Below, piece by piece: positions 33,439 through 52,109 of a stretch of DNA of 64,000 nt. The position numbers and the translations under genes were made by a program. Each line of letters opens with the position of its first letter. Position 1 is the first letter of the stretch. Source of the DNA: Methanolobus psychrophilus R15 (GTDB lineage: Archaea > Halobacteriota > Methanosarcinia > Methanosarcinales > Methanosarcinaceae). Under the pieces are notes generated by a model, which worked only from the letters and a program-made list of their open reading frames with translations, ran no database searches and was not told the DNA's origin. Where the stretch lies: positions 1,054,001-1,118,000 of the forward strand of contig CP003083.1 in the NCBI GenBank assembly GCA_000306725.1, given 5' to 3'.

Positions 33439-33540
33439 CAAGAGAATCAAATGACTTTATTGCGCTCTACAATCAGCTACATAGGGACTTTTTGAGCGAG
33501 TTCAGGTATTTGTATGACCTGAAAAATGGTTGCATCTAAA

Positions 33541-33580: not shown

Positions 33581-33646
33581 GATACCTGGAGAAAGAACAA
33601 GCTCTAAGCATTGTGAATATTTCATCAGGCAGTAAATATTTGTCAT

Positions 33647-34183: not shown

Positions 34184-34394
34184 TCATCTTCCTATTTATC
34201 TTTCTACTAAATAAATTGATTAAGTACCTATATTTAGAAACATTGTTTCCAATACAATAAATGCTCATAGTCATTTTTTATAAATGTACGTTAGTTCAGA
34301 ATTAGGGACGAGAGATACACGCAATCCATTGCAGTTCTCTTGAGACTCTTTCTGCAACTTATAGTGGTTTGATAAATATAGTGGGGTACAACAT

Positions 34395-35995: not shown

Positions 35996-36003
35996 ACCAG
36001 AAG

Positions 36004-36067
36004 CCCACAGGCCCTGCCACGGTATTCAGGTGCTTTACCTAACACCTTGTAGGCAGGGTTCTGTGGG
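36004..36067 (+). terminator. Three-tier stem-loop after the surface-protein pair
   Basis: CCCACAG/CTGTGGG, CCTGCC/GGCAGG and AGGTG/CACCT pair in nested order (36004-36067), giving one long interrupted hairpin about 9 bases after the stop of the preceding gene. The outer arms are two copies of the dispersed motif in inverted orientation. A terminator or RNA-stability element is likely. Nothing else is visible up to 36260. Confidence 0.5.
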
Positions 36068-36260
36068 TGCAATTTGTTGAAAGTAAGTAGATTTCATTTT
36101 ATTATGCTCTACAATCGCTCAGTTAGGGCTTTATTTGTTGTTTTGATGGTATCGTATGTCTGATGTTTTATGTGCTTGTAGGGCTTCTAAGGGGCTGGAA
36201 GTGGTGGAAAGTGGGATTTGAATTTAATACTCTAGCATAAGGAGATTAACTTGCAGGATA

Positions 36261-36938
36261 CTATTTAAGCGGGAAACTAGTAAATAAAGATATTCCGCCA
36301 AACACTATATACATTAAAAATAAAAAATATATAAGAAGCACTACAATTTTTAAAAGGTCATACGCATTTGAAAAATTAAACACTTTTTCATTCTCATCTA
36401 CTGTGTTTAAATCTTTTATTTCGAGATTTTTGATGTCTTTTATGTGTGCAGATATTATATTAAGTTTTGGACTTTTTCCAATGCATGTAAAACGTATTTT
36501 GAAATAATCTTTTTGATTCAACAAATCAAATGAATATTTAAGAGTTCCTTCTCTACTACTATTGTGGAGAACAATTACTTCAATTTCCTTCGGATTTTTT
36601 TCTATAACTTCATCTGATATTAAATTTGCATTATCGCTAAACTCAAAAGTTAATGGGATAGAAATGTCCTGTTGCGTTATGGGAATATCGCCATTATTTA
36701 CTATTTTAACTTCTAGCATTGAAAGATTATTTACTATCTCTCCTTTGTAATGTATTTCTATATAATCTCTTATTTGTGGTTTTATGTCAATGAGTGATAA
36801 ATTCGGATATATAACACATTGTAATCGTTTTCTTTTGATGTTTAACTTATAAATAAATACAGGAATTACAATAGCAGCTATAATTGCAATAACAGTTAAT
36901 ATTACTTGTACATCTACCACTATGAATACTCCAACCAA
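36261..36938 (-). CDS. Membrane hypothetical protein
   Basis: 225 residues. An N-terminal helix (VILTVIAIIAAIVIPVFIY), a soluble middle domain of about 140 residues and a C-terminal helix (LLKIVVLLIYFLFLMYIVF). The soluble part (KIVNNGDIPITQQDISIPL, VIVLHNSSREGTLKYSFDLL) has the pattern of a beta-sandwich often seen in bacterial membrane proteins near defence loci, but I do not assign a family. It converges with the surface pair. Confidence 0.65.
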   Translation of the reverse strand: MVGVFIVVDVQVILTVIAIIAAIVIPVFIYKLNIKRKRLQCVIYPNLSLIDIKPQIRDYIEIHYKGEIVNNLSMLEVKIVNNGDIPITQQDISIPLTFEFSDNANLISDEVIEKNPKEIEVIVLHNSSREGTLKYSFDLLNQKDYFKIRFTCIGKSPKLNIISAHIKDIKNLEIKDLNTVDENEKVFNFSNAYDLLKIVVLLIYFLFLMYIVFGGISLFTSFPLK

Positions 36939-37276
36939 CTTATAATGTTAGTATACTAATAATTACATATTAAACTTATGTATTTTGTAATACTTATCCA
37001 CATACATGAAAGCCTGCAAAACAATCAGTATACTTTTTAAGTGAAAGAGAATACTTTTTAAAAAGTTCCTTTTTTTCTTGCCATGTAAAAAAAGTAATAT
37101 TTCTATACATAAGTTCTTTTTCCTTGTTACCTAGAACTTCTCATACTGGTGCGACTTATACAATTTGAACTGCGTTTAAGCTCATTAGCACCTCTCAGGG
37201 TCACGCAGACCGCACAGAGAGGGTTTTGTTTGATGGTTTGATGTAATTGTGCTACCTGCGAAGTGACCCTGTTAGG

Positions 37277-37316
37277 GCGATTGTGGTGAGTATCAGACAG
37301 GGCAGGGAATGTGGAG
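37277..37316 (+). repeat. 40-bp direct repeat, copy B
   Basis: 39 of 40 identical to 33541-33580. It lies between the membrane-protein gene and hsdM. The rest of 36939-37350 is AT-rich with no gene I can support. Confidence 0.75.
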
Positions 37317-37350
37317 AGAAGCTAAGTCACTTCAATTGTTTAATTCCAAG

Positions 37351-38856
37351 TTACGTGCTTCCTCCATTTCCATTGAGCGTTATCACAATCTCCCTAAAAC
37401 TCTCTAAACCCGCTTCGATATTCTCGATAATCTCATTTGCAAGGATATCAGGGTCAGGAAGATTATCAAGGTCTGCTAAGCTCTTGTCCTTAAGCCAGAA
37501 TATATCTAGGCTGGTCTTGTCCCTTGCTATAATCTCTTCGTAGGCGAACCTGCGGAAGCGGCCCTCTGGGTTATCTTCACTCCATGTTTCACTGCGCTTG
37601 TGTCGGTCATCAGGGTTATAGCAACTTATGAAGTCTTCGAGGTCAGCGTATTTCAGGGGATTCTTTTTCAGTGTGTGATGCACGTTAGTCCTGTAATCGT
37701 ATATCCACACCTCTTTTGTCCATGGGTTTTTAGCCGCAGCTTTTGCCTCAAAAAATAGCACGTTCGCCTTAACTCCATTAGCATAAAATATGCCTGTAGG
37801 CAATCTCAATATGGTATGCAGGTCAGTGGTTTCCATGAGTTTCCTGCGAACGGTTTCACCGGCTCCACCCTCGAAGAGAACGTTGTCGGGTAATACCACA
37901 GCTGCATGACCGCCTGCTTTTAGGATAGTGTGTATGTGCTGCACGAAGTTGAGTTGTTTGTTGCTGGTAGTGACCCAGAAGTCCTGGCGGTTATACGTGA
38001 GGTCTTCTTTTTCCTGCTCGCCTTCATTATTAGTGAAGGTCATGCTGCTCTTCTTTCCGAAGGGAGGATTGGTGAGCACGTAGTCATACCGAATTCCGGG
38101 GTCGGCTATGAGAGCATCAGAGTTGGATATCATAGGCTCGCCGTCTATTTCCCCAATGTTGTGCAGGAAGAGGTTCATCAGCGCCAGCCTGCGGGTTCCT
38201 GGGACTATTTCATTGCCTCCGAAGGTCCTGTCTTTCAAAAAACGACTCTGTTCCTTGTCAAGCTGATTATGTGATTGCTTTGATGTGAGGAAGTCATAGG
38301 CAGCAAGGAAGAACCCACCAGTACCGCAGCAAGGGTCACCTATGGTCTTCATTGGCTGTGGACGCAGGCACTCAACCATGACCTTGATAAGCGGCCTGGG
38401 TGTGAAGTATTGACCTGCCCCGCTCTTTGTGTCCTCTGCATTTTTCTGTAGCAGGCCTTCATATATCTCGCCCTTGGTGTCAACACCCATCATGACCCAG
38501 CTTTCTTTGTCAATCATATCGATGACCTTATAGAGCATTGCAGGGTCGCTTATTTTATTCTGGGCCTTGAGGAATATCTGTCCAAGCATCCCCGGCTTTT
38601 TTGCAAGCTCATCCAGCAAGTTCCTGTAATGAGTGTCAAGCTCAGCTCCTCTCTTTTGCTTAAGCACATCCCATCTATACTCCTCTGGGATGCCAATATC
38701 TCTGTTATATGGCGGTTTCCTGTACTCGTCTGCCATTTTGAGGAATATGAGAAAGGTCAGCTGCTCCAGATAATCTCCATAGCTCACGCCGCCATCACGC
38801 AATACATTGCAGAAGCTCCACACTTTTGATACAACAGATGAATTATTTTCAGACAT
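37351..38856 (-). CDS. hsdM: Type I restriction-modification, methyltransferase subunit HsdM
   Basis: 501 residues. Adenine-N6 methyltransferase of the HsdM kind: N-terminal helical domain, SAM-binding motif GDPCCGTGGFF (about residues 173-183), catalytic NPPF (263-266). With HsdS it methylates host sites; with HsdR it cuts unmodified DNA. It is the last gene of hsdR-hsdS-hsdM, 35 bases after hsdS. The length is normal and no break is seen. Confidence 0.96.
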   Translation of the reverse strand: MSENNSSVVSKVWSFCNVLRDGGVSYGDYLEQLTFLIFLKMADEYRKPPYNRDIGIPEEYRWDVLKQKRGAELDTHYRNLLDELAKKPGMLGQIFLKAQNKISDPAMLYKVIDMIDKESWVMMGVDTKGEIYEGLLQKNAEDTKSGAGQYFTPRPLIKVMVECLRPQPMKTIGDPCCGTGGFFLAAYDFLTSKQSHNQLDKEQSRFLKDRTFGGNEIVPGTRRLALMNLFLHNIGEIDGEPMISNSDALIADPGIRYDYVLTNPPFGKKSSMTFTNNEGEQEKEDLTYNRQDFWVTTSNKQLNFVQHIHTILKAGGHAAVVLPDNVLFEGGAGETVRRKLMETTDLHTILRLPTGIFYANGVKANVLFFEAKAAAKNPWTKEVWIYDYRTNVHHTLKKNPLKYADLEDFISCYNPDDRHKRSETWSEDNPEGRFRRFAYEEIIARDKTSLDIFWLKDKSLADLDNLPDPDILANEIIENIEAGLESFREIVITLNGNGGST

Positions 38857-38891
38857 ATTATAAACCTTTGATAATAGACAATATAATGATA

Positions 38892-40262
38892 TTATTTTGC
38901 GGTAGCTTTCTCAGCCTTGATTCTTTCCAACAGCTTCTCAGCCGGCTCCCAGTCAGGTGCACTTCTCACTTCTTCGAGTTCCCTTTCATTGAGCAGCTTA
39001 CCTTCGAACGCTTTTTTCAGAATACTCTGCCGCAGCGCCTCAGCCTTCTCCAGATTCTCCACAATGTCCTGCTCCAGTTTATCACAGACTGAAAGGCGCG
39101 TTTCAATTTGCTGGACGATGGCTTGTTGTTCGGGAAAGGAACAGAGTGGAAAATTAATGGAATATAAAATGGTTTGATTAAGGAATAACCTTGTAGAACC
39201 TTTGCACAATTCTTTTACTTGTTCTCTTACATTGCCACCTTGGAAAAGATAAACAAAGTACTTTGTGGAAATAAGACTACTATTTAGTCGTATTCTCATT
39301 AGATTTGTTGAAATTATCCCCTCTTTTATCTTTTCAGGTATAGCACAAATCTCTCCAACGGTTCCTGACCTTGAAATAATAATATCATTTGGTTGGACTT
39401 TAAATGCTTCCAATTCATGGAATTTTCTTTCAGTGATGAATATCTTATTTGGCATTCTAAAAACGCCTTCGCCAATGTTTTCTATTCCATAAACTGGAAT
39501 TCCACTCGCTTGATGTTCGTGTTTTTTTAAAGATGTTCCAAAAGGTCCAGTTTTCATTCCATTCTTTGAATCTTCTAAAATAGAATCAATTTTAACCCAG
39601 CGCCAATCATCCGGCAGATTGACCTGCTGCTCCCGCCATTTCCTTGTAAGCTCGCCCTCAAAAGCTTTCTTTAACACTGCCTGCCGGTAAACTTTGAGCT
39701 GCCCCTGTGCCAGTCTGAGATTGATGATGCCGTTGTCAAGGTCGCTGAAGAGTTGCTCGAGTTTGGAGACTATAGCGCGCTGTTCGGGGAAGGGCGGGAG
39801 ATTAAAATTTATATTTTCGATATCAGTTTTTCGAACTGATGGAACAGTAGTTGCTCTTGAATAATCTTCAAGTTTTAATCTAACTAGAAAATAGTATAAA
39901 AATAAATCTAGACAAAGCACCTCGTTGGCTTTTATTCCAATAGCATTATTGTCTACGATAGCTGGTTCTTTAGTAATTGCTCTTCTATTAAGCTTAAGTG
40001 CCTCCCCAATCTTAGCAAAGACAATTGTATTAATAGGATACGGTTTTGCCTTTAACTGTTTTAGCTCCAAGTCGTCAATGTAATTTACACACTCATTTAA
40101 GTATCTATTTCCAGCTTGAACGTTTTTTGATATGTCCCCAACTTTGAAAAATGGATATTTGCCATTTGATTTTCCTTGAAGATTTTTTGGAAAACCATAA
40201 CCGGAATAAATATCAGTAATATCACTCAGTGAACATTCTAACCATCGGTTTCTTTCTTCCAT
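38892..40262 (-). CDS. hsdS: Type I restriction-modification, specificity subunit HsdS
   Basis: 456 residues. Two target-recognition domains, each followed by a conserved helix: LPPFPEQRAIVSKLEQLFSD near residue 155 and FPEQQAIVQQIETRLSV near 380. Repeated VLKKAFEGELTRKWREQ and ILKKAFEGKLLNERE mark the half-repeat structure. It sets the bipartite DNA site. It starts two bases after the hsdR stop, so expression is coupled. Confidence 0.95.
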   Translation of the reverse strand: MEERNRWLECSLSDITDIYSGYGFPKNLQGKSNGKYPFFKVGDISKNVQAGNRYLNECVNYIDDLELKQLKAKPYPINTIVFAKIGEALKLNRRAITKEPAIVDNNAIGIKANEVLCLDLFLYYFLVRLKLEDYSRATTVPSVRKTDIENINFNLPPFPEQRAIVSKLEQLFSDLDNGIINLRLAQGQLKVYRQAVLKKAFEGELTRKWREQQVNLPDDWRWVKIDSILEDSKNGMKTGPFGTSLKKHEHQASGIPVYGIENIGEGVFRMPNKIFITERKFHELEAFKVQPNDIIISRSGTVGEICAIPEKIKEGIISTNLMRIRLNSSLISTKYFVYLFQGGNVREQVKELCKGSTRLFLNQTILYSINFPLCSFPEQQAIVQQIETRLSVCDKLEQDIVENLEKAEALRQSILKKAFEGKLLNERELEEVRSAPDWEPAEKLLERIKAEKATAK

Positions 40263-40264
40263 TT

Positions 40265-43027
40265 TTAAGCCGCCAGTGCCTCATTCAATTCACTAATAAT
40301 CCCGTTCATCTCGTCACCAAAGAGCTGATACATCCTGCCCCGTCCCCCTAAGGTGTCGAAGGGTTGATAATCCAAGTCCTCGAGCTCCAGATGGAAACTG
40401 TTGGTAACATGGTCCTTTATCATGCGCAACCAGTTCATCTGCTCCTCATTGAACTTCAAGGTTCCGGCTTGCTTGCTAAAAACCCATTCCTGGAAGTTAC
40501 GGTTCACAGTCAGGTCGTAAGCGGTCAATACAGAGTCTATCTCAGTAACCCTGCGAATAAGTGATACAAGGGCCGTAAGCTCGCTTCTGGGGGAATTACC
40601 ATTGACCTTCTCAAGCTGCTCATAAGCCTGCCACACCCGCGTCGGTGCTAACTGAGGCTTGTCCATTTTCAGTCGCTTCAACACCTCCTTAATCATTTCA
40701 AAGGTCACTTCCCTGCGCTTGTAGGGCTGATTATAAAATATTTTCAGCGCGGTAATCTCATCCTTGTGTGATTCCAAGTATGCCTTAAAATCGATGATAA
40801 TCTCATCTGCCCTCAACACAGCGTCCCTGTCCCATTCGGCCCTAGTTACAGTATCAATATTCACTGTATCAATAATCTGTTCATGAACTCTGCGCACATT
40901 TTCAATATACTCGTTCAGCTCGCCTGAGAAAGTCGACCTTGCAACATCAATAAGTTCCTGTTGTGCTTTTGCCTTAGCCTCACCCCCTTGAATCTCCGGT
41001 TGTCTCAACTGTATTTCAAAAGCCTTAGAATCAATAACATCAGGATTATACGCACTAAGCAAATCGTTCACAGCTTGACTAAATGTTTTTCCACCGGCCT
41101 TTGTAGCAAAGGCTTCCTTCTCTTCCTCAGTGAGTTGCCTGCCAAGTCTGGCCAGCCGGTTAGCAAGCGACACATAAAGGTCCTCGTCCTTTGCACCCAT
41201 CGTCACAGCCGCAAGCAGGTCTTTCAGAGCCACCCCTTTCTTGCGCTCCAGAGGTCTGCTATCGGTCTTCATGGACTTAGTCACACCCACAGCATCCACA
41301 ACCACAAAATGCGTCTTTGCAGAAGCAACCGAAGGAGTCACCTTCTTGAGGTCATCGAATCCCATGATTCTCGTGCCACGCCCCTTCATCTGCTCGAAGT
41401 AATTACGGCTCTTCACATCCCTCATGAAAAGCAGACATTCTAGTGGTTTCACGTCGGTGCCTGTTGCTATCATATCTACTGTTACAGCTATCCTGGGATT
41501 GTAATCATTGCGGAAAGCCGAAAGCACAGACTTTGGGTCATCGCCTTCCTCAGGTTTATAGGTCACCTTCTTGCAAAAAGCATTGCCTTCCCCGAACTCT
41601 TCCCTCACAATCTGTATAATATCATCAGCATGACTGTCGGTCTTCGCGAATATCAGGGTTTTTGGAACTTCTTGCCTGCCCGGAAAAATCTCAGGCAACT
41701 TGTCCTTAAAGGTTCTAATCACATTCCGCATCTGACTGGGATTAACAACATCCTTGTCAAGCTTACTCGATGTGTATATGTAGTCATCGTCCAGTTGCTC
41801 CCAGCGTTTCCTTCGGCTGAGTTTTTCCCGCTTGTCCACAAATTCCTTCGCTTTTATCTGTGCCCCGTTCTTGGTTATCTCGGTTTCGATAGTGTACACA
41901 TCATAGCCTACATTAACACCATCAGCAACCGCGTTCTCATGACTGTATTCACTGACAACATTCTCATTGAAGAAACCGAATGTTCTCTTATCCGGCGTCG
42001 CTGTCAGCCCTATCAGGAAAGCATCAAAATAATCCAGCACCTGCTGCCACAGGTTGTATATCGAACGATGACACTCGTCGATAACCACAAAATCGAATGT
42101 CTCGATTGGTATCTTCTCATTATAAACTACAGGTAGTGGTTCCTTAGGCTGCCATCCCTTCTCAGCAGGATTCTCCTTTTCCATATCCTCATCCAGCTCT
42201 TCATCCTTTAGTATCGAATAAAGACGCTGTATGGTCGAGATGCACACCTGGCTGTCCGATGATATGTAACTCGAACGCAGCCTCTGGACATTATATAATT
42301 CAGTGAACTTACGATTATCATCGTTTGGTACATAGGCCATAAACTCCTGTTCAGCCTGCTCCCCAAGGTTCCTGGTATCAACAAGGAACAATATCTTCTT
42401 CGCATCTGCATATTTCAGCAGCCGATAAATGAATGTGATAGCAGTATAGGTCTTCCCGGAACCCGTTGCCATCTGTATCAGTGCCCTCGGGCGATTGTCT
42501 TTAAATGATTCCTCGAGCTTGACAATTGCCCTCACCTGACAATCCCGCATTCCCCTTGTCCCAAGCCCCGGAATGTCATGAAGTCTTGTCCTCAGTGATT
42601 TATCCTTCCCCAGCCATCCCCTAAAGGTCTCAGGTCTATGAAAAGAAAAAACTGGCCTAGACCTAGGCTTAGGGTCACGGTAGTCGGTAAACCTTGTCAA
42701 TTCCCCATTGCTCTCATAAACGAAAGGTAACGGCCCATTATCTAAATACTTTAGCTTGCTTGACGCATACCCCAAAGACTGTTCCTCAACAGCTGTCAGT
42801 TTGTGTCCTTCCTCAGCCTTCTTAGCCTCAATAATCCCAACAGGCGACCTATCAATAAAGAGGACATAATCAGCAGGTCCTACATCTGTCAGATATTCCT
42901 TAATCGCAATCCCCTGCGATACTTTCCAGTCTATTCTGTCTTTCTCTTGCACTACCCAGCCAGAATTAATTAGTTTTCCATCAATAGTATCTCTGGCTTT
43001 TTGTTCAGGGCTCTGGTTTTGAATCAT
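40265..43027 (-). CDS. hsdR: Type I restriction-modification, endonuclease/translocase HsdR
   Basis: 920 residues. N-terminal PD-(D/E)xK nuclease region (DVGPADYVLFIDR, GIIEAKKA; about residues 48-72), then a superfamily 2 motor: Walker A ATGSGKT (near 188), DECH box (317-320), SLTATP-like LTATPDKRTFGFF, and RGTRIMG (motif VI). It translocates DNA and cuts when complexes collide. First gene of the operon; its promoter must lie in 43028-43100. HTH-like C-terminal part ends near SELNEALAA. Confidence 0.96.
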   Translation of the reverse strand: MIQNQSPEQKARDTIDGKLINSGWVVQEKDRIDWKVSQGIAIKEYLTDVGPADYVLFIDRSPVGIIEAKKAEEGHKLTAVEEQSLGYASSKLKYLDNGPLPFVYESNGELTRFTDYRDPKPRSRPVFSFHRPETFRGWLGKDKSLRTRLHDIPGLGTRGMRDCQVRAIVKLEESFKDNRPRALIQMATGSGKTYTAITFIYRLLKYADAKKILFLVDTRNLGEQAEQEFMAYVPNDDNRKFTELYNVQRLRSSYISSDSQVCISTIQRLYSILKDEELDEDMEKENPAEKGWQPKEPLPVVYNEKIPIETFDFVVIDECHRSIYNLWQQVLDYFDAFLIGLTATPDKRTFGFFNENVVSEYSHENAVADGVNVGYDVYTIETEITKNGAQIKAKEFVDKREKLSRRKRWEQLDDDYIYTSSKLDKDVVNPSQMRNVIRTFKDKLPEIFPGRQEVPKTLIFAKTDSHADDIIQIVREEFGEGNAFCKKVTYKPEEGDDPKSVLSAFRNDYNPRIAVTVDMIATGTDVKPLECLLFMRDVKSRNYFEQMKGRGTRIMGFDDLKKVTPSVASAKTHFVVVDAVGVTKSMKTDSRPLERKKGVALKDLLAAVTMGAKDEDLYVSLANRLARLGRQLTEEEKEAFATKAGGKTFSQAVNDLLSAYNPDVIDSKAFEIQLRQPEIQGGEAKAKAQQELIDVARSTFSGELNEYIENVRRVHEQIIDTVNIDTVTRAEWDRDAVLRADEIIIDFKAYLESHKDEITALKIFYNQPYKRREVTFEMIKEVLKRLKMDKPQLAPTRVWQAYEQLEKVNGNSPRSELTALVSLIRRVTEIDSVLTAYDLTVNRNFQEWVFSKQAGTLKFNEEQMNWLRMIKDHVTNSFHLELEDLDYQPFDTLGGRGRMYQLFGDEMNGIISELNEALAA

Positions 43028-43686
43028 ACCTTTTTCGTCCGCAAGTTTTCAAGATAGACATTCAGAATGGCAGATTATAAGTAACTGGATAAAGAATATC
43101 ATTCCCATTCCATATAAATATTTATACTAACTCTCAAGTAGCCTCTTTTTATCTCACACTTGAATAAAGTAAATGGAGATAAAGAACCTAAAAGATGGAT
43201 AATACCCCCTATAAACTCCATTAGTTTATACTTATTACATATGCGGGGGTACGTCGATATGTCCCTCAAAAAAATGCAACTCCCCGCCGCCCCCGAACCC
43301 CACGCACACAGCCTACGCGCTGTTGCGTGCACTCAAGCACACCGACGTAAGAGGACGAAAACCCACACGCCCTGCCTTTTTGGTGCTGGGCTTACAGATT
43401 AGAGTTATATGTCGAACTTTTAACGAGCAGCAACCTCTGCACCCGAATCGATTCTTTTTCAGATACCCTGCAATGCGGTCAACCAGTACCTGACACTAGC
43501 ACATCAACCTCTCGGTAAAAGCCCCGCTTCGACCCTCACAGGGCTTTTAAACACGTATGAATAGTACAAGAATAACCCCATTTTGAACACACCAAGAGAC
43601 AGTTTTTAGTGCCCGCTAAAAAACTATCTTGAACTTGTGAATTAACATAGTTTTATTAAGTTTAGAAACAATTTTCCAATATAATT
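43028..43686. other. Intergenic region upstream of hsdR
   Basis: 659 bases with no gene I can support; an 80-codon frame at 43160 lacks a ribosome site and has a composition unlike protein. It holds a hairpin CACGCACACAGC / GCTGTTGCGTG (43300-43328) in an unusually C-rich stretch, a copy of the dispersed motif (43361-43376), and an AT-rich terminator-like hairpin AGTTTTTAG / CTAAAAAACT (43601-43625). Confidence 0.5.
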
Positions 43687-44031
43687 ATGTCCGACAATTT
43701 TCTTTCAGATGCTGGAATTACTCTAGGTGAAGGATTTACTGGTGGAATTGCTTTTTTAATTGGACTTAAATTTGGAGTTCCAATAGATGAAGGTGGACTT
43801 GGGCTTTTTGTTGCTGAGGAAATGCTCGAAGCATCTAAACAAGTGGCTCCAACTGCAAATTATTCTTCAGCAGAGTCACTCCTAATGTTTGTAAGTTTCT
43901 TTATATTTGTTATTTCAATAATAGCGTTATTTGTAAGTATTACACGAATTGGTGACTGGAAAATAGGTGCATTACTATATGGTATTGGTTTTATCTTTGG
44001 AGCAATAATTATTCTGTCTGCCCTCCCATAA
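43687..44031 (+). CDS. Small three-helix membrane protein
   Basis: 114 residues. A short Gly-rich start (GITLGEGFTGGIAFLIGLKF), then two clear membrane helices (LLMFVSFFIFVISIIALFV; IGALLYGIGFIFGAIIILS). No known family. Start ATG at 43687 with no strong ribosome site but an AT-rich promoter-like stretch upstream, so a leaderless transcript is possible. Confidence 0.55.
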   Translation: MSDNFLSDAGITLGEGFTGGIAFLIGLKFGVPIDEGGLGLFVAEEMLEASKQVAPTANYSSAESLLMFVSFFIFVISIIALFVSITRIGDWKIGALLYGIGFIFGAIIILSALP

Positions 44032-44479
44032 ATCCAAATCAATTATATAATCAACACTGAATACATATTTCACCCACATGCCCTGCCTGTGTAATATACG
44101 ATTCCACAAATATTTAATCGATATCTGGCATTACAGTCACTAAAAAAAGAATAACTATCGGAAATAATACAGAAAGTATATATTCATTCAAAGCATATTG
44201 GTATATATGGCTCAGCGGCTATGCATGACATCCAAATGTTTCAGACCTAACTGATTTGTATATTTCTGCCGTTATACTCCTTTAAAGCCGCCTGAGCCTT
44301 TTTTCTGCTTATGACTTGCAAAGGCTAATTGCAGAATCACTTCCCACACACTGAATTAAAAAACATATTGATTAACCCTTGTTTTCTTTACGCCGAATCC
44401 ATCTTAAAAGTATAAATACCATCTCTTATGTTGTGCTAAAAAGGGGTTAGGGAAGCTGTGAAATAGGCTCGTATTCAAA
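44032..44479. other. Intergenic region without a supported gene
   Basis: 448 AT-rich bases. Only a copy of the dispersed motif (CCCACATGCCCTGCCTG at 44073-44089) stands out. No ORF with a ribosome site and no convincing RNA gene is seen. Confidence 0.4.
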
Positions 44480-45094
44480 TCAAACCGGCACTTCTCGTTC
44501 TTCATATTTAGTGACTGTTCTATATTTAGTAACTGTTCTATACTTAGTAACTGGTTTTGTAATGGTTTTTGTACCCGGTGTTACATAATAATTTATATTA
44601 TAATTTTCACCAGCACTAATATCAAATTCCTCTCTGAATGTTACTGATTCACCCGGGACAATATACTTTGAAGTAGATTTTGACTCATCAGGGTTATTCA
44701 ATGTTGAAATTGTTTGTGCTACGCTAAAAATTCCACTTTCAGAATCTACATTTCTAACAGTAACTTCTCCATATGCCCATACATCAAAACCTTTATAAAA
44801 ATTACTTTTAGTGGCACTTACGACTTCATATTTCAGATTTATTATCTCATCTTCATATGCAGTATATGGTTCTTCTTCGGTATAGGATTCTTGCACTTCA
44901 TAGGGCACTTTAATAATTTTTGTTCTTTGAATTGGCTCACTTGTTTCTTCTACAAAATAGGTAGAAGATGACGACCCATCGTCAGAAGATGACGACTCAT
45001 CGTCAGAAGATGACGACCCATCATCAGAAGTACATCCTGAAACAAATACAGTTAGAATTATTAACAGAATCATATATTTAAATTTAGCATCCAA
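44480..45094 (-). CDS. Lipoprotein with DDGSSSS repeats
   Basis: 204 residues. A lipoprotein signal with lipobox (LIILTVFVSGCTSD) ends in a Cys for lipid attachment. Next comes a linker of three seven-residue repeats (SDDGSSS-type; three 21-bp DNA units at 44963-45025), then a beta-rich domain and a C-terminal repeat KYRTVTKYRTVTKYEE (18-bp units). The folded middle (KYEVVSATKSNFYKGFDVWAYGE...) looks like a small FxLYD/DUF4352-like immunoglobulin fold. A surface-exposed cargo protein of the element; role unknown. Confidence 0.7.
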   Translation of the reverse strand: MDAKFKYMILLIILTVFVSGCTSDDGSSSSDDESSSSDDGSSSSTYFVEETSEPIQRTKIIKVPYEVQESYTEEEPYTAYEDEIINLKYEVVSATKSNFYKGFDVWAYGEVTVRNVDSESGIFSVAQTISTLNNPDESKSTSKYIVPGESVTFREEFDISAGENYNINYYVTPGTKTITKPVTKYRTVTKYRTVTKYEEREVPV

Positions 45095-45601
45095 TGTTAT
45101 CCTACCCCTATAAAATTTTATAACTGGAATATATACAATATTTAACTATTATGATAAAACGATAGTGTTAAGTATGTATATATACTTTATGGAAAAAATT
45201 ACGCACGTTTCTACTTGGGGTTCTCTAGTAGTAACCTTATTCCTGCACATTAACTCTACCTTAAAGATATCTATATTATACAGATATTATAAAAATGGGA
45301 TTGGAATTTCGAAACCTTTCTTGTAAACAACGGAAGTTTATTAAATCGCATTCTTTCTATGATAATCGGTTGCAGATGGGATTTAGAAGGCTAGAAAGTA
45401 AATACGAACAATTTAATATGGTATTCAATGGATTGTTGGATGTTGCAGGATGTGCTTGAAAAAGACATGAGGGCCGTTTTGGAACAGGTTCACCCTATTC
45501 GACATTTTCACAAATCGCGTACAAAGGGCTTCATGACTAACCTATACAAGACATCAACCTAACTCTCAAGTCCCTGCCTCGGCCCTCAGAAGGGCATCTT
45601 G
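45095..45601. other. Intergenic region with a weak ORF
   Basis: A 44-codon frame (45428-45562, plus strand; MDCWMLQDVLEKDMRAVLEQ start) has no ribosome site and is uncertain; it may be a gene remnant. A small hairpin GCCCT-CAGA-AGGGC at 45582-45595 lies just past the 3' end of the next gene and may terminate it. Nothing else is visible. Confidence 0.35.
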
Positions 45602-45883
45602 TCACTTTTTAACGTAAATGCGCTGATGCAAGTAATTCTCTTTAAGAAATTCATTAAATTGTATCAGTTCACCCTCACTTAAGGGCATCCCATACGTTCG
45701 ACTTCTGTCAGCGACCCATTCATCCAATTTTATCTGTAATTGCTCATCATTCTTATTTTGTTTTATAAACGCCAAACAATCCCTTATAAAAAATCGTTGT
45801 TCTTTTTTTGGGAATGTCTTCGGTGATGGGTTAATATAGCCCAGCTTGTAAGAGTTATCAAATTCGTGTAATCGACTTTGCAT
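45602..45883 (-). CDS. Small hypothetical protein
   Basis: 93 residues, soluble, with a basic centre (KTFPKKEQRFFIRDCLAFIK) and an acidic helix (DEQLQIKLDEWVADRSR). No family recognised. Only weak ribosome-binding sequence (GAGCTGAG) precedes the ATG. A DNA-binding or regulatory role is possible given its position beside the iterons, but the sequence does not show it. Confidence 0.5.
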   Translation of the reverse strand: MQSRLHEFDNSYKLGYINPSPKTFPKKEQRFFIRDCLAFIKQNKNDEQLQIKLDEWVADRSRTYGMPLSEGELIQFNEFLKENYLHQRIYVKK

Positions 45884-46015
45884 AGTCTCAGCTCCTCGAA
45901 TATTATTAAAAACAATCCGCAGCGCAGCTATTTATAATTTTGCGGCTCTTGATATCGTTATTTCCGCCCACAGGGGGCCTGCCTGTGAGTTTAGTTGGGG
46001 GCTTTAGGGATGGAA

Positions 46016-46119
46016 GAAACAATGGCCGCACAAAAGCGAGGAGGCTCCGCGTAGCGGAACCGAGCTAATGCGGCGACGAGCGCAGCGAGGCGGAGCATTG
46101 AATTTGCGGCTATTGTTTC
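46016..46119. ncRNA. GC-rich structured block, candidate RNA
   Basis: GAAACAATGGCCGCA (46016-46030) pairs with TGCGGCTATTGTTTC (46105-46119) at 14 of 15 positions. Inside, GCTCCGC (46044-46050) pairs with GCGGAGC (46090-46096), and TGCG/CGCA (46069/46081) close an inner loop. The block is far more GC-rich than its AT-rich surroundings, with no ORF. It could be a structured RNA (for example copy control) or a DNA cruciform of the replication region. Confidence 0.4.
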
Positions 46120-46313
46120 GTAATATGAGAACACAGCACTCAAAGCCCTATCCTTGCCCTTCCTTGCCCTCGCAAGTGATGGTTAAGGTGTAAGTATGGT
46201 CTGAAACAGAAGGGCTTTAAAAGGGCTACTGGTAATGTTATGTAAAATTTTCGACAGCATGCAGCGCAGGCAGGGCCTGTGGAGGCATTCATTCTAAAAG
46301 TTATTTCATGTTT

Positions 46314-46812
46314 GAGATTTTGGTAGTGGAAGACGTTGTGAAGGGAGATTTTGGTAGTGGAAAATTTTGTGAAATATAGCAGTTCTTTAAACAATTTACT
46401 GTCTTTTAACTCTGCCTATAGCAAAATCCCCTCCTTGTAGTGTCTATAGATAGCGTTGTCTCTTTTTACAATCCCAAAATCTCAGGGTTGGGGATTTTGG
46501 TATAGGCAATGAATATTCAATAATATAATCAATATCAGTAGTAATAATTAATTATATTATATTCCTATACTAAAATCCCCAAAATCCCCTAAAATTAGAG
46601 ATAGGTGCGTTCAATATAAAATAGGTATTTTGATGAAGGTCTGAACCTACCTTAACCTCTCTCAAAAAAGGGGATTTTGGGGATTTTAGTAGTGGCAGTG
46701 AAGATTTTCACACACTTTGAAAAATGAATGGGGATTTTGGTATAGGCAAAGAATGCTTGATGTCAAAATCGACATCGGTAAAAAATAGGTTGAGGGGATT
46801 TTGGTGGCGGCA
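46314..46812 (+). repeat. Iteron array, candidate replication origin
   Basis: Eight copies of a 17-19-bp repeat, consensus GGGGATTTTGGTATAGGCA. Six are direct (46314, 46343, 46490, 46679, 46730, 46794) and two inverted (46413-46431, 46564-46580). A very AT-rich stretch (about 46510-46563) lies between copies and would serve as the unwinding region. The array ends eight bases before the stop of the AAA+ ATPase gene. Iterons with an AT-rich core next to a replication gene are the standard plasmid origin design. Confidence 0.8.
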
Positions 46813-46819
46813 ATACCGA

Positions 46820-48592
46820 TTAGGTAATTTTCGGTATTGTCATAGGTGCCATTATGTTTGGTTTAGGTACTGGCTTGTTGATAAGTTCATCATCTCCTGG
46901 ATTATATTGTTTCTCGTTCACTTTTTTAGCTTCATCGAGCTTAGCTTTTACCAATTTGTATATGGGATTGCTCGCAACGAAGTAATAAGTTCTCGATGTG
47001 GTCTTCCCTTCGCTGGTCTCTTGGACCTTCTCGGACAAGAAGCCCGGAACTTTGCTTCTAAGCCCAGAGTCCGATTCCCTTCCTTTGCCGTTAATTGCCT
47101 TATTAACTTGGTTATCTGTCATACCCAGCTCACTTATTATGTCGTTCAGGTTGACATATCCCCTTTTCATAACGACCTGAAGGACTTTCTCTTCGTTGTC
47201 GGTGCGTTTTGTTGCTATGAGCGATTCTCTTGGTGACAATATTTCCATCGCATCGTTATAGTCCTCAATTGTGGCTATAAGGTTGCCTTTAGAGTCCCTA
47301 TGTCTCTGGTGGTGGCGCAGAATTGCGAAGGACTTGACCATGTCTGCAAGCATTTCGCGAAGCCTCTTATTTTTTTTATCAGGTCTTGCTCTGAACATGT
47401 CTCCGACCTCTTTAGAGAACTTTACGCGATACGTAGACTTCCTTATATCACGCATGATTTCGCGACAGATAAGGACATCTTCGGTTATGTCGTCTTCGGA
47501 CCTACAATTCTCTTGCATGTCTATCCAAGAATCGTCTATGGTGCGGTCTCTGTCTTCGGATGGCTTGACCTCATTGCTGAAAAAGCGACTTCTCAATTGC
47601 TCTCCACCGTCCAGCAAGACGCTCGACAGTATAAAGGCAAGACGCTTTGCAGTTGTAAGAGTCAACGATTTATCCTCACCTTTAATTCCCATGTCTACTG
47701 TCGTATATTTGCATGGGTGTTGGAAGTTGGTCGTTGCTTCTTTAATGATGTCTGTGGCATTTTGAGATAGGTTCACCTCATCTATATAAATGAGAAATCC
47801 GTCCGGGAACTTCTTATAAAAAAGGGACTTATCTGAGAATTTCTCCATGCTGTATAGCTCAGATGGCATTATGAAGAGCATATACTTGATTCCGTATGAT
47901 TTACCCTCACCAGAAGGTCCAGACATAGCTTGATGGAGCCCTTTTGTATTGAGTCCGGCACAGCAGCAGAATTGAAGCAGTACAAAGCTTCCAGTGATGA
48001 ACTCCCCGATGATGACCTTGTTGTAGGTATTAAGTATGAACCTGTAAGGGTCACCATATTGAGCTATCTTGAGGGCTTTGTCTTTGATGGTCGCTCTGTC
48101 GAAACCCTTAAATTCTTCTTTAAGTTGCGCTTCCTGTTTCGTCTCTTCGTAGTTATAGACTTTCTCCATTAGTTTCTTTTCCAGAGCTTCTTTTTCCATA
48201 GGTGATACTTTATACTTTGCGAAGTTGTCGATGAAATCCGATATCATTTTCGCAACAAACTCCCTGCCTGCATCCCTAATTATAAAATGCTCGACCATCG
48301 CTTCTCCTATAGCCTGAACCATGCTCTCATCAGTTGGAAGGCAGGCAGGCGCTGTGGAGGAAACAGGTTTAGTGTGTTCTTTCCAAGCGTTCTCAAGGAA
48401 ATTCATCACATCATATTCCGGTGCTTTTACATCCAACATCCAGTGTCCCCGGAATTTGTTAGAAATTGTATCCCAGTCACATCCCTGGGATATCATTTTG
48501 AGCCCTGTCTCTTTTATAAGCTCCAGTGAGCCTTTACAACCACGACCAGTCTCATCGCAGGCAGGCGCTGTGGAGTTAATTTCGTTGCTCAT
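46820..48592 (-). CDS. AAA+ ATPase, probable replication initiator/helicase
   Basis: 590 residues. Walker A GPSGEGKS (225-232), Walker B GFLIYIDEVN (D271, E272), a sensor-like AFILSSVLL and an arginine-finger-like GGEQLRSRFF near 330. The C-terminal part (about 460-540) looks like a winged helix (VVMKRGYVNLNDIISELGMT). This order fits archaeal plasmid and virus helicases distantly related to MCM-type ATPases; a close family is not assigned. Two copies of the sequence STAPAC (7-12, 79-84) are encoded by the dispersed DNA motif. Its ATG overlaps the stop of the upstream small gene (ATGA). Confidence 0.7.
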   Translation of the reverse strand: MSNEINSTAPACDETGRGCKGSLELIKETGLKMISQGCDWDTISNKFRGHWMLDVKAPEYDVMNFLENAWKEHTKPVSSTAPACLPTDESMVQAIGEAMVEHFIIRDAGREFVAKMISDFIDNFAKYKVSPMEKEALEKKLMEKVYNYEETKQEAQLKEEFKGFDRATIKDKALKIAQYGDPYRFILNTYNKVIIGEFITGSFVLLQFCCCAGLNTKGLHQAMSGPSGEGKSYGIKYMLFIMPSELYSMEKFSDKSLFYKKFPDGFLIYIDEVNLSQNATDIIKEATTNFQHPCKYTTVDMGIKGEDKSLTLTTAKRLAFILSSVLLDGGEQLRSRFFSNEVKPSEDRDRTIDDSWIDMQENCRSEDDITEDVLICREIMRDIRKSTYRVKFSKEVGDMFRARPDKKNKRLREMLADMVKSFAILRHHQRHRDSKGNLIATIEDYNDAMEILSPRESLIATKRTDNEEKVLQVVMKRGYVNLNDIISELGMTDNQVNKAINGKGRESDSGLRSKVPGFLSEKVQETSEGKTTSRTYYFVASNPIYKLVKAKLDEAKKVNEKQYNPGDDELINKPVPKPNIMAPMTIPKIT

Positions 48593-48855
48593 GAAAGCAC
48601 CCCAGGAAGTCTCATAGAATTCTTTATAAACCCTGAGGAGCTAATCGATGTGCGAAGGAAGGATGAAACTTTCTCCTCGTAATATACACCGCCCTGCCCG
48701 GCATTTCTGGATGCTGTGGGGCGGGTGGTGTTCCCTTTCTTCCTATTGCCGCTGGATAAGGTTGTGGGCGATGCTGTCGACTTCGCCCATTGTTGGACTG
48801 TTTCGGGGTTTTCTATGTGGACTCTCAGAGCCCACGCTAATAATGGTTTTATCAT
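48589..48855 (-). CDS. Small protein coupled to the AAA+ ATPase
   Basis: 88 residues, ATG at 48855 with AGAAGGAG seven bases upstream, and a stop overlapping the ATPase start by four bases. Basic and Ser/Thr-rich (SPTTLSSGNRKKGNTTRPTA), with a helical N-terminus (LLAWALRVHIENPETVQQWA). No family recognised. Position and coupling suggest a replication accessory or regulator. Confidence 0.6.
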   Translation of the reverse strand: MIKPLLAWALRVHIENPETVQQWAKSTASPTTLSSGNRKKGNTTRPTASRNAGQGGVYYEEKVSSFLRTSISSSGFIKNSMRLPGVLS

Positions 48856-48891
48856 AGTGTACTCCTTCTATGGGAGTCACACAAAAACAAA

Positions 48892-48900
48892 GTTTATATA
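48892..48900 (-). promoter_or_regulatory. TATA box of the replication operon
   Basis: TATATAAAC on the minus strand, about 40 bases upstream of the 48855 start. Distance and sequence fit an archaeal promoter for the two-gene replication operon. Confidence 0.5.
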
Positions 48901-49003
48901 CCTCGACAGCGTAGAAACTATTGCTGAAGTTGTTTTCATGCGCAGGCGAGTTTCTTTGCTTTGCGTGTGACTCTTATTTTTTATTTCATATGTGGGTTTG
49001 TGG

Positions 49004-49129
49004 TTATATATGGAAACCTCTTTGCCGCGCAATCTCACGTGGTGGTTTCCCAGTTAGTTGTGCTTCGTTGATTATCTCCTTGTAAATTCGTTGTGCTTCA
49101 TTTTCTATATATTTTTCAAGTTCATTCAT
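49004..49129 (-). CDS. 41-residue hypothetical protein
   Basis: ATG at 49129 with TGGAGGAC just upstream, a strong ribosome site. Helical, polar (MNELEKYIENEAQRIYKEII) ending in a basic stretch (PPREIARQRGFHI). Too short for most gene callers. No family; it may be a transcription-related small regulator next to the RHH gene. Confidence 0.5.
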   Translation of the reverse strand: MNELEKYIENEAQRIYKEIINEAQLTGKPPREIARQRGFHI

Positions 49130-49167
49130 AGTCCTCCATGAGTCTTAGAGGGCTGTCTATGGAGGGC

Positions 49168-49305
49168 TTATCTGTTCAGGGGAATTTTCTTCATCTGCTC
49201 GCGAAGCAACCTGCTTATGAATTGAGAGCGGTTGTGTCTTCCACGAGCATTTTCAAGCCATTCAAACACGTCGGGTTCAAATGCAATCGAACGCGCTAAT
49301 CTCAC
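49168..49305 (-). CDS. Ribbon-helix-helix DNA-binding protein
   Basis: 45 residues from a GTG at 49305 with GAGGTGAG upstream. A beta strand (VRLARSIAFEP), helix (DVFEWLENARG) and second helix (RSQFISRLLREQMKK) match the CopG/Arc-type ribbon-helix-helix fold. Such proteins control plasmid copy number or int/rep expression. A TATA-like ATATATATA lies at about 49352-49360, upstream on the same strand. Confidence 0.7.
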   Translation of the reverse strand: MRLARSIAFEPDVFEWLENARGRHNRSQFISRLLREQMKKIPLNR

Positions 49306-49647
49306 TTTTGTTCTCACCTCGCTTTTTTAGTATCATAACTACTTAACACCTAATGGTATATATATCCTTTGAGCAAAAACACTAGCATAAGAAGTCTTTC
49401 AAATTTATTTTTGTTTCATTTTGGCCATACACCATATTTGTACAGGTAGTGAAGATTAAATTATCTCTTTTTAGTAAAACCGCATCAAGAGAGGTGCTAT
49501 CGTGTATATATTTTTTGACTAATATATGAATGTATTTAAGATAACGTTAACAATTTTCCAGCAAGCTTCATGCGGTTCAAAAAATAAAAGTGAATGAAAG
49601 GTTTTCAGTGTACCCAAACATGAAGCAATCCAAAAAATGAAATAAGA
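49306..49647. other. Intergenic region between RHH and integrase genes
   Basis: 342 AT-rich bases. It holds the likely RHH promoter (TATA near 49355) and the 3' end of the integrase transcript. No other gene or repeat is evident. Confidence 0.4.
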
Positions 49648-50922
49648 TTATTTTTTACTGTCAATAAGTTCTTTGAGACGCTCGGTGACAGCATCGTTGA
49701 TTAATTTTTCCATGTTGCTGATTTTGGATTTTATTTCAGCGTTCTCATTGCGGAGGTCTGATAGCTCTGAGCGCTCAACGATGTGACGAGCAGTCTCGGC
49801 TTGCAATATGCTATTTTCTTTCTTGACGGCTTGGTATTCAGGGGATTCGGAGACGTCCAATTCCTTGCGAATGGTGATATAAGGGATGAACTTTTTATAT
49901 ATTTCTTTGAGCTTCTCCGGGTCACCCTCAAAATAGGTTGCTTTTGCACCGTCGAGGGTGTGACCCATGAAGTACTCGACGAGGTCGCCATCACAGCCAG
50001 CATTTTTAAGGCTACTGTTAAAGAACTTTCGCATGTTGTGTGAGCGTACGACATTATAGACACCTTTTTGACCGCCCATGCTCGCAGCCTTATTCAAGCG
50101 ATTGTAAACCCTTATAATAGTATCGGGTTTGCATTTTCTTATTTTCTCATCATGAGTTTCAAGGTATTGTGGGGGCGCTTTGCTTGCAACGAAAAGATAG
50201 CTGTCGGGTGTCGTTCTGCGCTTCTCATATTCTGTTACATCGCGCTTATTTAGAGGTCTGGCAGGCGGTCTATCACGCCATTCAAGATATTTTAAAATGG
50301 CTGCTGATGCTTCGGGAGAAATGAATGTGATGAAGTCCGTTCCGACTTTTTGTCTTCTCATGTCAAATGTAGTTATTCCAGTTTTTGGGTCGTAGCCATC
50401 TTTAAAGGCTTTTAGCGTGAGGCTTGCTATTTCTGCTGCTCCCATGCCTGAACTTATTCCACATAGCATAATGGCCCTATCCCGCACGTCTGCAAACTCA
50501 TGTGCTTTGTGTATGTCATCTTTTGTGGCCTTGCGCATGTTTTCTTTCAGAGGCTTGACCTTCTGTTTAGAGCGAGGCTGCTTTGGCACGTCTATATGAA
50601 AATATTTATAAAAAGAACAGACAGTGTTCACATATTTGTTCAGAGTTCCGGGGGCATGCTGTTTTCCTGCTTGGGGTGTAGTCAGAGTTTCCAAGTATTG
50701 TCTAAACGCAGGTATTCTCTTGAAGACGTGCCTCTCTGTCATCAGTTTTCCCGCTTTTAGGTCTGCATTTGCCTCCTCTATCAATTGCGTGGGAGTCATA
50801 TCAGTAAATTTTGTGTAGTGCACCAATGCAGACAGATAGTTCTGTTTTGTCATATCGGCTGGACTTATAAGAGCAAAAAGTTCTTTCAATTTTGGTTCGT
50901 TTTCTAGTTCTATTCTATTCAT
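49648..50922 (-). CDS. int: Tyrosine recombinase (integrase)
   Basis: 424 residues from the ATG at 50922, with AAGGAG upstream. N-terminal SAM-like DNA-binding domain (TKQNYLSALVHYTKF, LNKYVNTVCSFYKYFHID), then the catalytic domain. Numbered from this ATG, catalytic residues are K192 (MRRQKVG), H295 and R298 (RSHNMRKFF), H321 (YFMGHTLDG) and the tyrosine Y330 (KATYF). The first catalytic arginine is not where expected: SGMGAAEIASL has Gly in the place of Arg in LRxSEL. A coiled-coil tail of about 60 residues follows. It begins 20 bases from the arm site at the right end. Confidence 0.9.
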   Translation of the reverse strand: MNRIELENEPKLKELFALISPADMTKQNYLSALVHYTKFTDMTPTQLIEEANADLKAGKLMTERHVFKRIPAFRQYLETLTTPQAGKQHAPGTLNKYVNTVCSFYKYFHIDVPKQPRSKQKVKPLKENMRKATKDDIHKAHEFADVRDRAIMLCGISSGMGAAEIASLTLKAFKDGYDPKTGITTFDMRRQKVGTDFITFISPEASAAILKYLEWRDRPPARPLNKRDVTEYEKRRTTPDSYLFVASKAPPQYLETHDEKIRKCKPDTIIRVYNRLNKAASMGGQKGVYNVVRSHNMRKFFNSSLKNAGCDGDLVEYFMGHTLDGAKATYFEGDPEKLKEIYKKFIPYITIRKELDVSESPEYQAVKKENSILQAETARHIVERSELSDLRNENAEIKSKISNMEKLINDAVTERLKELIDSKK

Positions 50923-50941
50923 CTTTCTCAACTCCTTCTAA

Positions 50942-50950
50942 TATAGGAAC
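50942..50950 (+). repeat. Arm-type site next to attR
   Basis: TATAGGAAC, the reverse complement of GTTCCTATA at 31315-31323, 19 bases from the right core. It lies between the integrase start and the int TATA box, so integrase binding here could repress its own gene. Confidence 0.6.
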
Positions 50951-50953
50951 ATT

Positions 50954-50964
50954 CTTTATATAAC
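50954..50964. promoter_or_regulatory. TATA-like element facing both ways at the right end
   Basis: CTTTATATAAC reads as a TATA box on both strands: leftward for int (GGTTATATAAAG, about 35 bases upstream of its ATG) and rightward for the catalytic half of the ATPase (start 50988). Confidence 0.45.
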
Positions 50965-50969
50965 CTTTA

Positions 50970-50983
50970 TTCCTGAAGGAATA
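50970..50983 (+). repeat. attR core (right attachment site)
   Basis: TTCCTGAAGGAATA, identical to 31284-31297. Its GAAGGA (50975-50980) lies seven bases before the GTG at 50988 and can act as a ribosome site for the truncated ATPase. Confidence 0.88.
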
Positions 50984-50987
50984 CGGT

Positions 50988-52109
50988 GTGCGCGTGTCGG
51001 TCATCGGGGATCCCCTTAGTGCAAAAGGAATAGCCTATGCGTTCAGGAAGCACGCAAAGGATCCCTGGACGCTTCCAAAACTCATCAACACCGGCTCCAT
51101 ATCCCCGCTGGCTGCGGGGCTGCTGAGCTTTATCATGGATGGGCAGGCCTCCGTACTTGTTGCGGGTGGCGTAGGAGCCGGCAAGACATCCCTGCTGAGC
51201 GCCATGCTGCTGGAGATACCCCAGAAGTACAGGATACTCACCATTGAGGATACACCGGAAATACCAATCGAGCAGCTTCAGGAGATGGGGTGGAAGGTGC
51301 AGGGACTTAACTCACAATCGGCCATCATAAAATATGGCATCGAAATAGAGCCTTCAATGGCGCTTAGGGCTTCTCTGAGGCTTGGGAGTTCATCCCTTGT
51401 AATGGGAGAGGTAAGGGGTCCCGAGGTTTCGGTCCTTTACGAAGCCATGCAGGTTGGCGCCGCCGGTAATTCGGTCATAGGTACTATCCACGGCTCATCA
51501 ACGCGTTCGGTCTACGAGCGTATAGTGCACACACTTGGCGTCCCGACTGCATCTTTCAAGTCAACGGACGCAGTTATAGTTTGTAGCAATACCAGGATCG
51601 AGGGAAGCATGGTTTCAAAGCGCAGGGTTATCCAGATAGCCGAGGTCAACGAGAATTGGGACCCCCGGGACACCGACACTGTGTTCTCTGATGTACTGAA
51701 ATATAACGCATCTCTTGATTCCCTGGTACCGGCTGATATAATGGACAGGGGACAGTCGGTGCTCATCAGCAAGATAGCAGACAAATGGGGTATGAGCATC
51801 GGCCAGGCCTCTCAGAATATACGCCTGAGAGCAAAGATCAAGGAGAAAATGGCGGATTACGGCAGGAAGGATGCATTCTTTGTGGAATCATTCACTGTCA
51901 GCACAGCAAACAATATGTTCTGGCTGCTCACAGAAGAAGAGAAAAACTCTCAGGGAGGATCTGATCCGGAGAGGATCTACAGGAGATGGTCGGAGTGGTT
52001 TGAGGATTTCGCATCAAAACACTCACCCCAATTTGCGCAGCATACGGATGAATTTCCTGGCACGGACGAAAACGCCCTGATAGCAGCAGGTGGTTTCTCT
52101 GAGCAATGA
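50988..52109 (+). CDS. Secretion/pilus ATPase, catalytic C-terminal half
   Basis: 373 residues as a stand-alone frame from a GTG. It holds the full motor: Walker A AGGVGAGKTSLLS, Asp box ILTIEDTPEIP, Walker B VMGEVRGPEVSVL and His box GNSVIGTIHGSS, the order of GspE/TadA/FlaI ATPases. It is continuous in frame with 29844-31283 once the element is removed (joint FLKEY-GVRVSVIGDP). Alone it lacks the N-terminal domain that helps build the hexamer, so function is doubtful. Followed directly by its membrane partner gene. Confidence 0.92.
   Translation: MRVSVIGDPLSAKGIAYAFRKHAKDPWTLPKLINTGSISPLAAGLLSFIMDGQASVLVAGGVGAGKTSLLSAMLLEIPQKYRILTIEDTPEIPIEQLQEMGWKVQGLNSQSAIIKYGIEIEPSMALRASLRLGSSSLVMGEVRGPEVSVLYEAMQVGAAGNSVIGTIHGSSTRSVYERIVHTLGVPTASFKSTDAVIVCSNTRIEGSMVSKRRVIQIAEVNENWDPRDTDTVFSDVLKYNASLDSLVPADIMDRGQSVLISKIADKWGMSIGQASQNIRLRAKIKEKMADYGRKDAFFVESFTVSTANNMFWLLTEEEKNSQGGSDPERIYRRWSEWFEDFASKHSPQFAQHTDEFPGTDENALIAAGGFSEQ

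What the first reader, a model, noticed from the sequence alone, without database searches (positions are those of the whole stretch)
46314..46812. Eight iterons around an AT-rich core beside an AAA+ ATPase
The repeat GGGGATTTTGGTATAGGCA occurs eight times (six direct, two inverted) in 500 bases with an AT-rich interval between, and the array ends at the stop of the replication-type ATPase. This is a ready-made plasmid origin inside an integrated archaeal element, so it may also replicate free.
Basis: partly seen in the sequence, partly recalled or inferred. Interest (0 to 1): 0.75.

Follow-up and report, generated by a model that had tools for sequence, protein, structure and literature searches.

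The report
Replication origin of an archaeal element
A 500-base cluster of short DNA repeats in a methane-making archaeon is very probably the replication start site of a 19.7-kb integrated genetic element, read by the element's own MCM-like helicase, and the same repeat-behind-helicase layout recurs in dozens of other methanogen elements and plasmids.

Summary
Eight copies of GGGGATTTTGGTATAGGCA (six +, two -), plus three weaker or half copies, lie at 46314-46812 around a 78-85% AT core and end 7 bp from the stop of the ATPase gene. They occur nowhere else in the 3.07-Mb genome except one chance match inside a gene. The surrounding element is real: five congeners carry the empty site, placing its ends at a 14-bp direct repeat (31284 and 50970) inside a secretion-ATPase gene. 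The ATPase has an MCM fold (Z 23) with a C-terminal winged helix, but no Pfam or NCBIfam model recognises it. I found its family in 41 of 238 genomes of the class, in viral contigs, in free methanogen plasmids (pMTBMA4, pMTB1) and in a 9-kb plasmid-like dimer contig. In 28 of 37 divergent members a two-orientation array of a different motif sits in the ~800 bp right behind the AAA+/winged-helix domain, coding or not (P=8e-17), with 11-bp phasing. Best reading: an iteron origin next to a self-loading MCM-like initiator helicase. It works like SaPI Rep/ori and SCC Cch2 but is not of their families. Binding and free replication of this element are untested.

The parts
31284..50983 (.). Integrated element; att core to att core, unit length 19,686 bp
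   Evidence: Five congeners join window ..31298/31301 directly to 50970..; GC 40.3% against 46-50% in the flanks
31284..31297 (+). attL core TTCCTGAAGGAATA
   Evidence: Direct repeat with 50970-50983; single copy in empty sites
50970..50983 (+). attR core TTCCTGAAGGAATA
29817..31337 (+). 5' half of the split secretion-type ATPase gene (last codons come from the element)
   Evidence: ORF; continuous in empty-site congeners
50988..52109 (+). 3' half of the split gene, T2SSE domain
   Evidence: Pfam PF00437 E 8.7e-20
46314..46331 (+). iteron 1, degenerate (GAGATTTTGGTAGTGGAA)
46345..46362 (+). iteron 2, degenerate
46413..46431 (-). iteron 3
46490..46508 (+). iteron 4 (perfect)
46509..46561 (.). 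AT-rich core, candidate unwinding element, flanked by inverted iterons
   Evidence: (pair I2)
46562..46580 (-). iteron 5, with overlapping half copy 46571-46589
46670..46697 (+). half copy plus iteron 6, 9 bp apart; mirror image of 46562-46589
46730..46748 (+). iteron 7 (perfect)
46794..46812 (+). iteron 8
46820..48592 (-). MCM-like AAA+ helicase (590 aa) with C-terminal winged helix; proposed initiator
48589..48855 (-). 88-aa ORF overlapping the start of the helicase gene; no family
49648..50931 (-). tyrosine recombinase (integrase) next to attR
   Evidence: Pfam PF00589 E 5.2e-7; PHROG 216 E 8e-17
37351..43027 (-). cargo: type I restriction-modification operon hsdR-hsdS-hsdM

Best explanation
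46314-46812 is the replication origin of a 19.7-kb integrative element. The element's MCM-fold helicase (46820-48592) binds the iterons with its C-terminal winged helix. Copies in two orientations on either side of the AT-rich core (46509-46561) would load helicase rings facing the core, melt it and start replication without the host Orc1/Cdc6. This protein has no primase domain, so priming would come from the host or another element protein. After integrase-mediated excision at the TTCCTGAAGGAATA repeats, the 19.7-kb circle could replicate, and excision would restore the split ATPase gene. Shown: repeats, AT core, element ends, MCM fold (predicted model), family-wide coupling of array to helicase. 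Inferred: binding, melting, excision, free replication.
For: The array is unique to the element. Element ends are fixed by empty sites. The protein fold is MCM: the 50 best PDB entries by VIA-align are all MCM, best 6mii_A with Z 23.2, rmsd 3.2 over 274 residues; predicted model pLDDT 81, with a winged helix at the C-terminus. Three of the first six relatives carry PrimPol domains in front, others too. In 37 relatives below 75% identity that retain the winged helix, the strongest repeat cluster of the locus lies within about 800 bp behind the domain in 23, and a z>=5 cluster in 28; chance is 0.079 per locus, P=8e-17; the motif differs per element, and nearly all arrays have it in both orientations. 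Repeat spacings peak at 11, 22, 31-33, 44 and 55 bp (99 against 9.5 expected at 11), the helical phasing of a protein-binding array. Relatives on free replicons: pMTBMA4 and pMTB1 (family HMM E 4e-50) with GGTGTTTCCCA in both orientations in the same zone, and an 18,044-bp contig that is a head-to-tail double of 9,028 bp with an array. Literature: SaPI Rep recognises iterons directly downstream of its own gene through its C-terminal domain, and SCC Cch2 does likewise (PMC7581432).
Against: No binding or replication data exist here. Nine of 37 relatives with the winged helix have no strong array behind it. In pMTBMA4 and pMTB1 the zone holds an array, but not the strongest repeat cluster of the plasmid. 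The reads needed to see a circle are not available. The 11-bp signal is partly mixed with codon periodicity (9, 12, 21, 30), although 11, 22 and 31 are not multiples of three.
Confidence: 0.8

Rival explanations
1. The array is a partition or copy-number/incompatibility locus rather than the start site itself.
For: Iterons outside a minimal origin often serve copy control; the outer copies (46314, 46345, 46413) are degenerate and lie away from the AT core.
Against: The partner next door is a helicase, not a ParA/ParB-type protein; the array is tied to the helicase across the family; an AT-rich core sits between inverted copies.
Confidence: 0.08
2. The array is a regulatory operator (autoregulation or terminator) at the 3' end of the helicase operon.
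For: It lies between genes, just behind the stop codon.
Against: It lies 3' of the gene, not at its promoter. In many relatives the array is inside the coding region, in both orientations. No Rfam match in the region.
Confidence: 0.06
3. A host-type origin: Orc1/Cdc6 boxes captured by the element.
For: The iterons have a G-run, as archaeal ORBs do (general knowledge).
Against: ORB-like sites beside the host's own orc1 gene read ACCCC..TGTTTCAA.TGGA (L024:6726-6920), unlike GGGGATTTTGGTATAGGCA; none of the three Cdc6_C genes is in the window; no iteron core in the three orc1 regions.
Confidence: 0.03
4. Integrase arm-type sites for excision.
For: The integrase is encoded in the same element.
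Against: The array is 3-4 kb from attR and 15 kb from attL, and is tied to the helicase in relatives at other sites.
Confidence: 0.02

Closest known systems
SaPI Rep/ori (Staphylococcus pathogenicity islands)
   Same: Integrative element; initiator helicase; iterons directly downstream of its gene, recognised by the helicase's C-terminal domain (PMC7581432).
   Different: Archaeal; protein not matched by the DUF927 or D5_N/Primase_Cterm models; 19-bp iterons; in many relatives the array lies inside the gene's 3' coding region.
SCCmec Cch/Cch2 helicases
   Same: Cch2 binds direct repeats downstream of its own gene through its C-terminal domain; Cch is described as MCM-like in a title cited in PMC6563490.
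   Different: No detectable sequence family in common; the present family is found in methanogen elements and is often fused to PrimPol.
Archaeal/eukaryotic MCM helicase
   Same: AAA+ fold (Z 23.2) and C-terminal winged helix.
   Different: No Pfam MCM hit; only a weak profile match to the host MCM around Walker A; paired with its own iterons instead of a loader-dependent origin.
pMTBMA4 / pMTB1 plasmids of Methanothermobacter (pME2001 type, from memory)
   Same: Their large Rep protein belongs to this family (E 4e-50), with an inverted-motif array in the same zone; a pME2001 replicon works in shuttle vectors (PMC8609365).
   Different: Small free plasmids with 800-aa Reps of low identity (25-27% to L089); their origin is not mapped in the papers read.
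PrimPol-helicase replication proteins of archaeal and phage elements
   Same: Several relatives carry Prim-Pol or NrS-1-type domains in front of this helicase.
   Different: The window protein has no primase domain.

Membership tests
SaPI Rep / SCC Cch-type self-loading initiator replicon | Iterons directly downstream of the helicase gene | tested here: met
   46314-46812 behind the stop at 46820; family-wide
SaPI Rep / SCC Cch-type self-loading initiator replicon | AT-rich segment between inverted iterons | tested here: met
   46509-46561
SaPI Rep / SCC Cch-type self-loading initiator replicon | C-terminal domain binds the iterons | not testable with these tools
   Winged helix predicted; binding needs an assay
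SaPI Rep / SCC Cch-type self-loading initiator replicon | Protein belongs to DUF927 or D5_N/Primase_Cterm families | tested here: not met
   No such Pfam or NCBIfam match for P0001 or for the core domains of its relatives
MCM helicase family | MCM AAA+ fold | tested here: met
   Z 23.2 to 6mii_A; the 50 listed entries are all MCM
MCM helicase family | Sequence match to the MCM model (PF00493) | tested here: not met
   No hit in Pfam scans; hhalign to host MCM probability 13.5
MCM helicase family | MCM N-terminal domain (OB fold, zinc finger) | tested here: inconclusive
   N-terminal 130 residues modelled with low confidence as helices
Host Orc1/Cdc6 (ORB) origin | ORB-type boxes next to an orc1/cdc6 gene | tested here: not met
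   Different motif; no orc1 in the window
Rolling-circle replicon (as Methanosarcina pC2A RepA) | HUH endonuclease | tested here: not met
   No HUH/Rep family among the element proteins scanned; pC2A described in PMC9569500
Integrative element | Integrase, att direct repeats and an empty site in relatives | tested here: met

The most novel reading that the evidence does not exclude
A so far unnamed family of MCM-fold initiator helicases drives replication of many methanogen mobile elements, and its origin is built into the 3' end of the helicase gene itself: in about half of the array-bearing members the iterons are written into the protein-coding sequence behind the winged helix, so gene and origin travel as one unit while the motif diverges per element.
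Probability: 0.55. Interest if true: 0.72.

Novelty: new variant of a known kind. Interest (0 to 1): 0.62.

Why it matters
It gives a simple rule (look behind the AAA+/winged-helix domain) that predicts origins of many uncharacterised methanogen elements, including the unmapped origin of the pME2001-type replicon used in Methanothermobacter vectors. It offers compact origin-plus-initiator cassettes for genetic tools, and adds an archaeal MCM-like helicase that seems to carry its own origin recognition, parallel to the staphylococcal SaPI and SCC systems.

Tried and rejected
P0001 alone found no relative in plasmids, phages, viral contigs or genome contigs; relatives appeared only with whole-genome searches and profiles. 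The first structure model (6 sequences, pLDDT 59) was too poor in the AAA+ core to use. My EM motif finder gave noisy motifs and was not used. Idea that members lacking the winged helix also lack arrays: the few such members fit, but after removing similar sequences only two remain (Fisher p=0.07), so it is not claimed. Exact 17-mer iteron hits in viral contigs are five single matches, taken as chance. Terminal repeats showing circularity were not found in six other complete contigs tested. pH6Ac of Methanothrix matched a relative only in the primase part. A possible common TGGTA-type core among the motifs of several members was seen but not tested.

Full report
Observation. The 19-mer GGGGATTTTGGTATAGGCA has six matches with three or fewer mismatches in the window, all in 46413-46812 (0.02 expected). 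Two degenerate copies at 46314 and 46345 bring the count to eight, six direct and two inverted. A weak copy (46466, -) and two half copies offset by 9 bp (46571 -, 46670 +) complete the array. The AT-rich core 46509-46561 lies between the inverted copies 46490(+) and 46562(-). The array is the only such 10-mer cluster in 64 kb and is absent elsewhere in the 3,072,769-bp genome apart from one chance match within a coding gene. Among 26 congeners only one single match with 2 or fewer mismatches exists.

The element. Five congeners align across the site without the insert: window sequence up to 31298/31301 continues directly at 50970. The ends share TTCCTGAAGGAATA (31284-31297 and 50970-50983), so the unit is 19,686 bp. 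It splits a secretion-type ATPase gene whose 3' half carries T2SSE and which is continuous in the congeners. A tyrosine recombinase sits beside attR. A type I restriction-modification operon is the main cargo.

The initiator. The 590-aa ATPase has no Pfam, NCBIfam or PHROG family. Whole-genome searches found six relatives, then 41 of 238 genomes of the class, five viral contigs and named contigs from Methanolobus, Methanosarcina, Methanoperedens and Methanosalsum, plus two bins labelled bacterial. Several relatives have Prim-Pol or NrS-1-type primase domains in front of the helicase. A model of residues about 130-565 (17 sequences, pLDDT 81, pTM 0.76) matches MCM helicases: all 50 listed entries are MCM, best Z 23.2, rmsd 3.2 over 274 residues, 17% identity (Foldseek E 4.5e-9). 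By sequence the link to the host MCM is weak. The C-terminus is a winged helix (three helices and a two-strand wing), and relatives give weak HTH matches there.

The family rule. For each relative I scored 500-bp windows of the locus for repeated 9-mers on both strands against Markov shuffles. In 37 loci below 75% identity that retain the winged helix, the best window of the locus fell within about 800 bp behind the AAA+/winged-helix domain in 23 cases and a z>=5 window in 28; chance is 0.079 per locus, P=8e-17. The motif differs from element to element, and nearly all arrays have it in both orientations. Where the gene stops soon after the domain the array is in the 3' flank (window, L018, L048, L089, L094); where the protein has a C-terminal extension the array lies inside coding sequence (L046, L049, L082, L085, L090, L096, L102, L105, L109). 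Identical 6-mers within these zones recur at 9-12, 20-23, 30-34, 42-46 and 53-57 bp; at 11 bp there are 99 against 9.5 expected. This is the phasing of sites on one face of the helix.

Free replicons. The large Reps of pMTBMA4 (4,440 bp, M. marburgensis) and pMTB1 are family members (E 4e-50) and have GGTGTTTCCCA copies in both orientations in the same zone, although other repeats on these plasmids score higher. A pME2001 replicon works in shuttle vectors (PMC8609365); that pMTBMA4 is pME2001 is from memory. In a genome of the genus that holds named Methanosarcina records, an 18,044-bp contig is a head-to-tail double of 9,028 bp (99.97% identity, three one-base gaps), as an assembled circle would be. 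It carries the helicase, an array and a DnaG-type primase.

Mechanism and comparison. SaPI Rep recognises iterons directly downstream of its gene with its C-terminal domain, and SCC Cch2 does the same biochemically (PMC7581432). The present system works like these, but is not a member: the protein families tested do not match. It is not a host ORB origin: ORB-like sites at the host's own orc1 gene are different and no orc1 lies in the window. It is not a rolling-circle replicon like pC2A (PMC9569500). Binding, melting, excision and free replication of this element remain to be shown.

Limits. Nine of 37 relatives lack a strong array in the zone. The site of initiation within the array, the source of priming and any role in copy control are inference.

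Noticed in passing
31595, 33565, 36005(-), 36052, 37301, 43363(-), 44074(-), 45968(-), 46269, 48344, 48560: A dispersed repeat GGCAGG-N(1-5)-TGTGG: all 11 copies of the window lie inside the element, mostly at gene-module borders (shuffles 0.075). 34 copies (N2-4) in the genome against 3-12 in congeners, with a second cluster at G000:C1:3.0136-3.0317 Mb. Function unknown.
   Followed up: partly
L175 (G000:C1:3012500-3032400): A second, probably decayed relative of the element: 515 bp at 89% identity to window 45675-46189, with a 71% identical paralogue of the 45602 protein, but no helicase family member.
   Followed up: partly
29817-31337 and 50988-52109: The element splits a T2SSE-type secretion ATPase gene that is continuous in five congeners; precise excision would restore it, so the element may act as a reversible gene switch.
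   Followed up: partly
about 14800-22120: Another insertion: homology to congeners breaks at the 3' end of tRNA-Leu(cag) 22130-22217, and genes at 14813-17860 resemble genes beside the helicase relative L018 (39-67% identity).
   Followed up: no
5909-6947 and 19975-21013: Two copies of a split transposase-like ORF pair, 95-100% identical to an intact 345-aa gene at L175:8599-9636; the transposase label is a guess, not a family hit.
   Followed up: no
57572-57658 and 57728-57815: Tandem duplicate tRNA-Leu(gag) genes, 86 bp identical.
   Followed up: no
L019, L099, L106-L108, L114, L115: A subgroup of the helicase family (Prim-Pol domain seen in L019) that stops right after the AAA+ domain, without the winged helix, and mostly without a nearby array.
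   Followed up: partly
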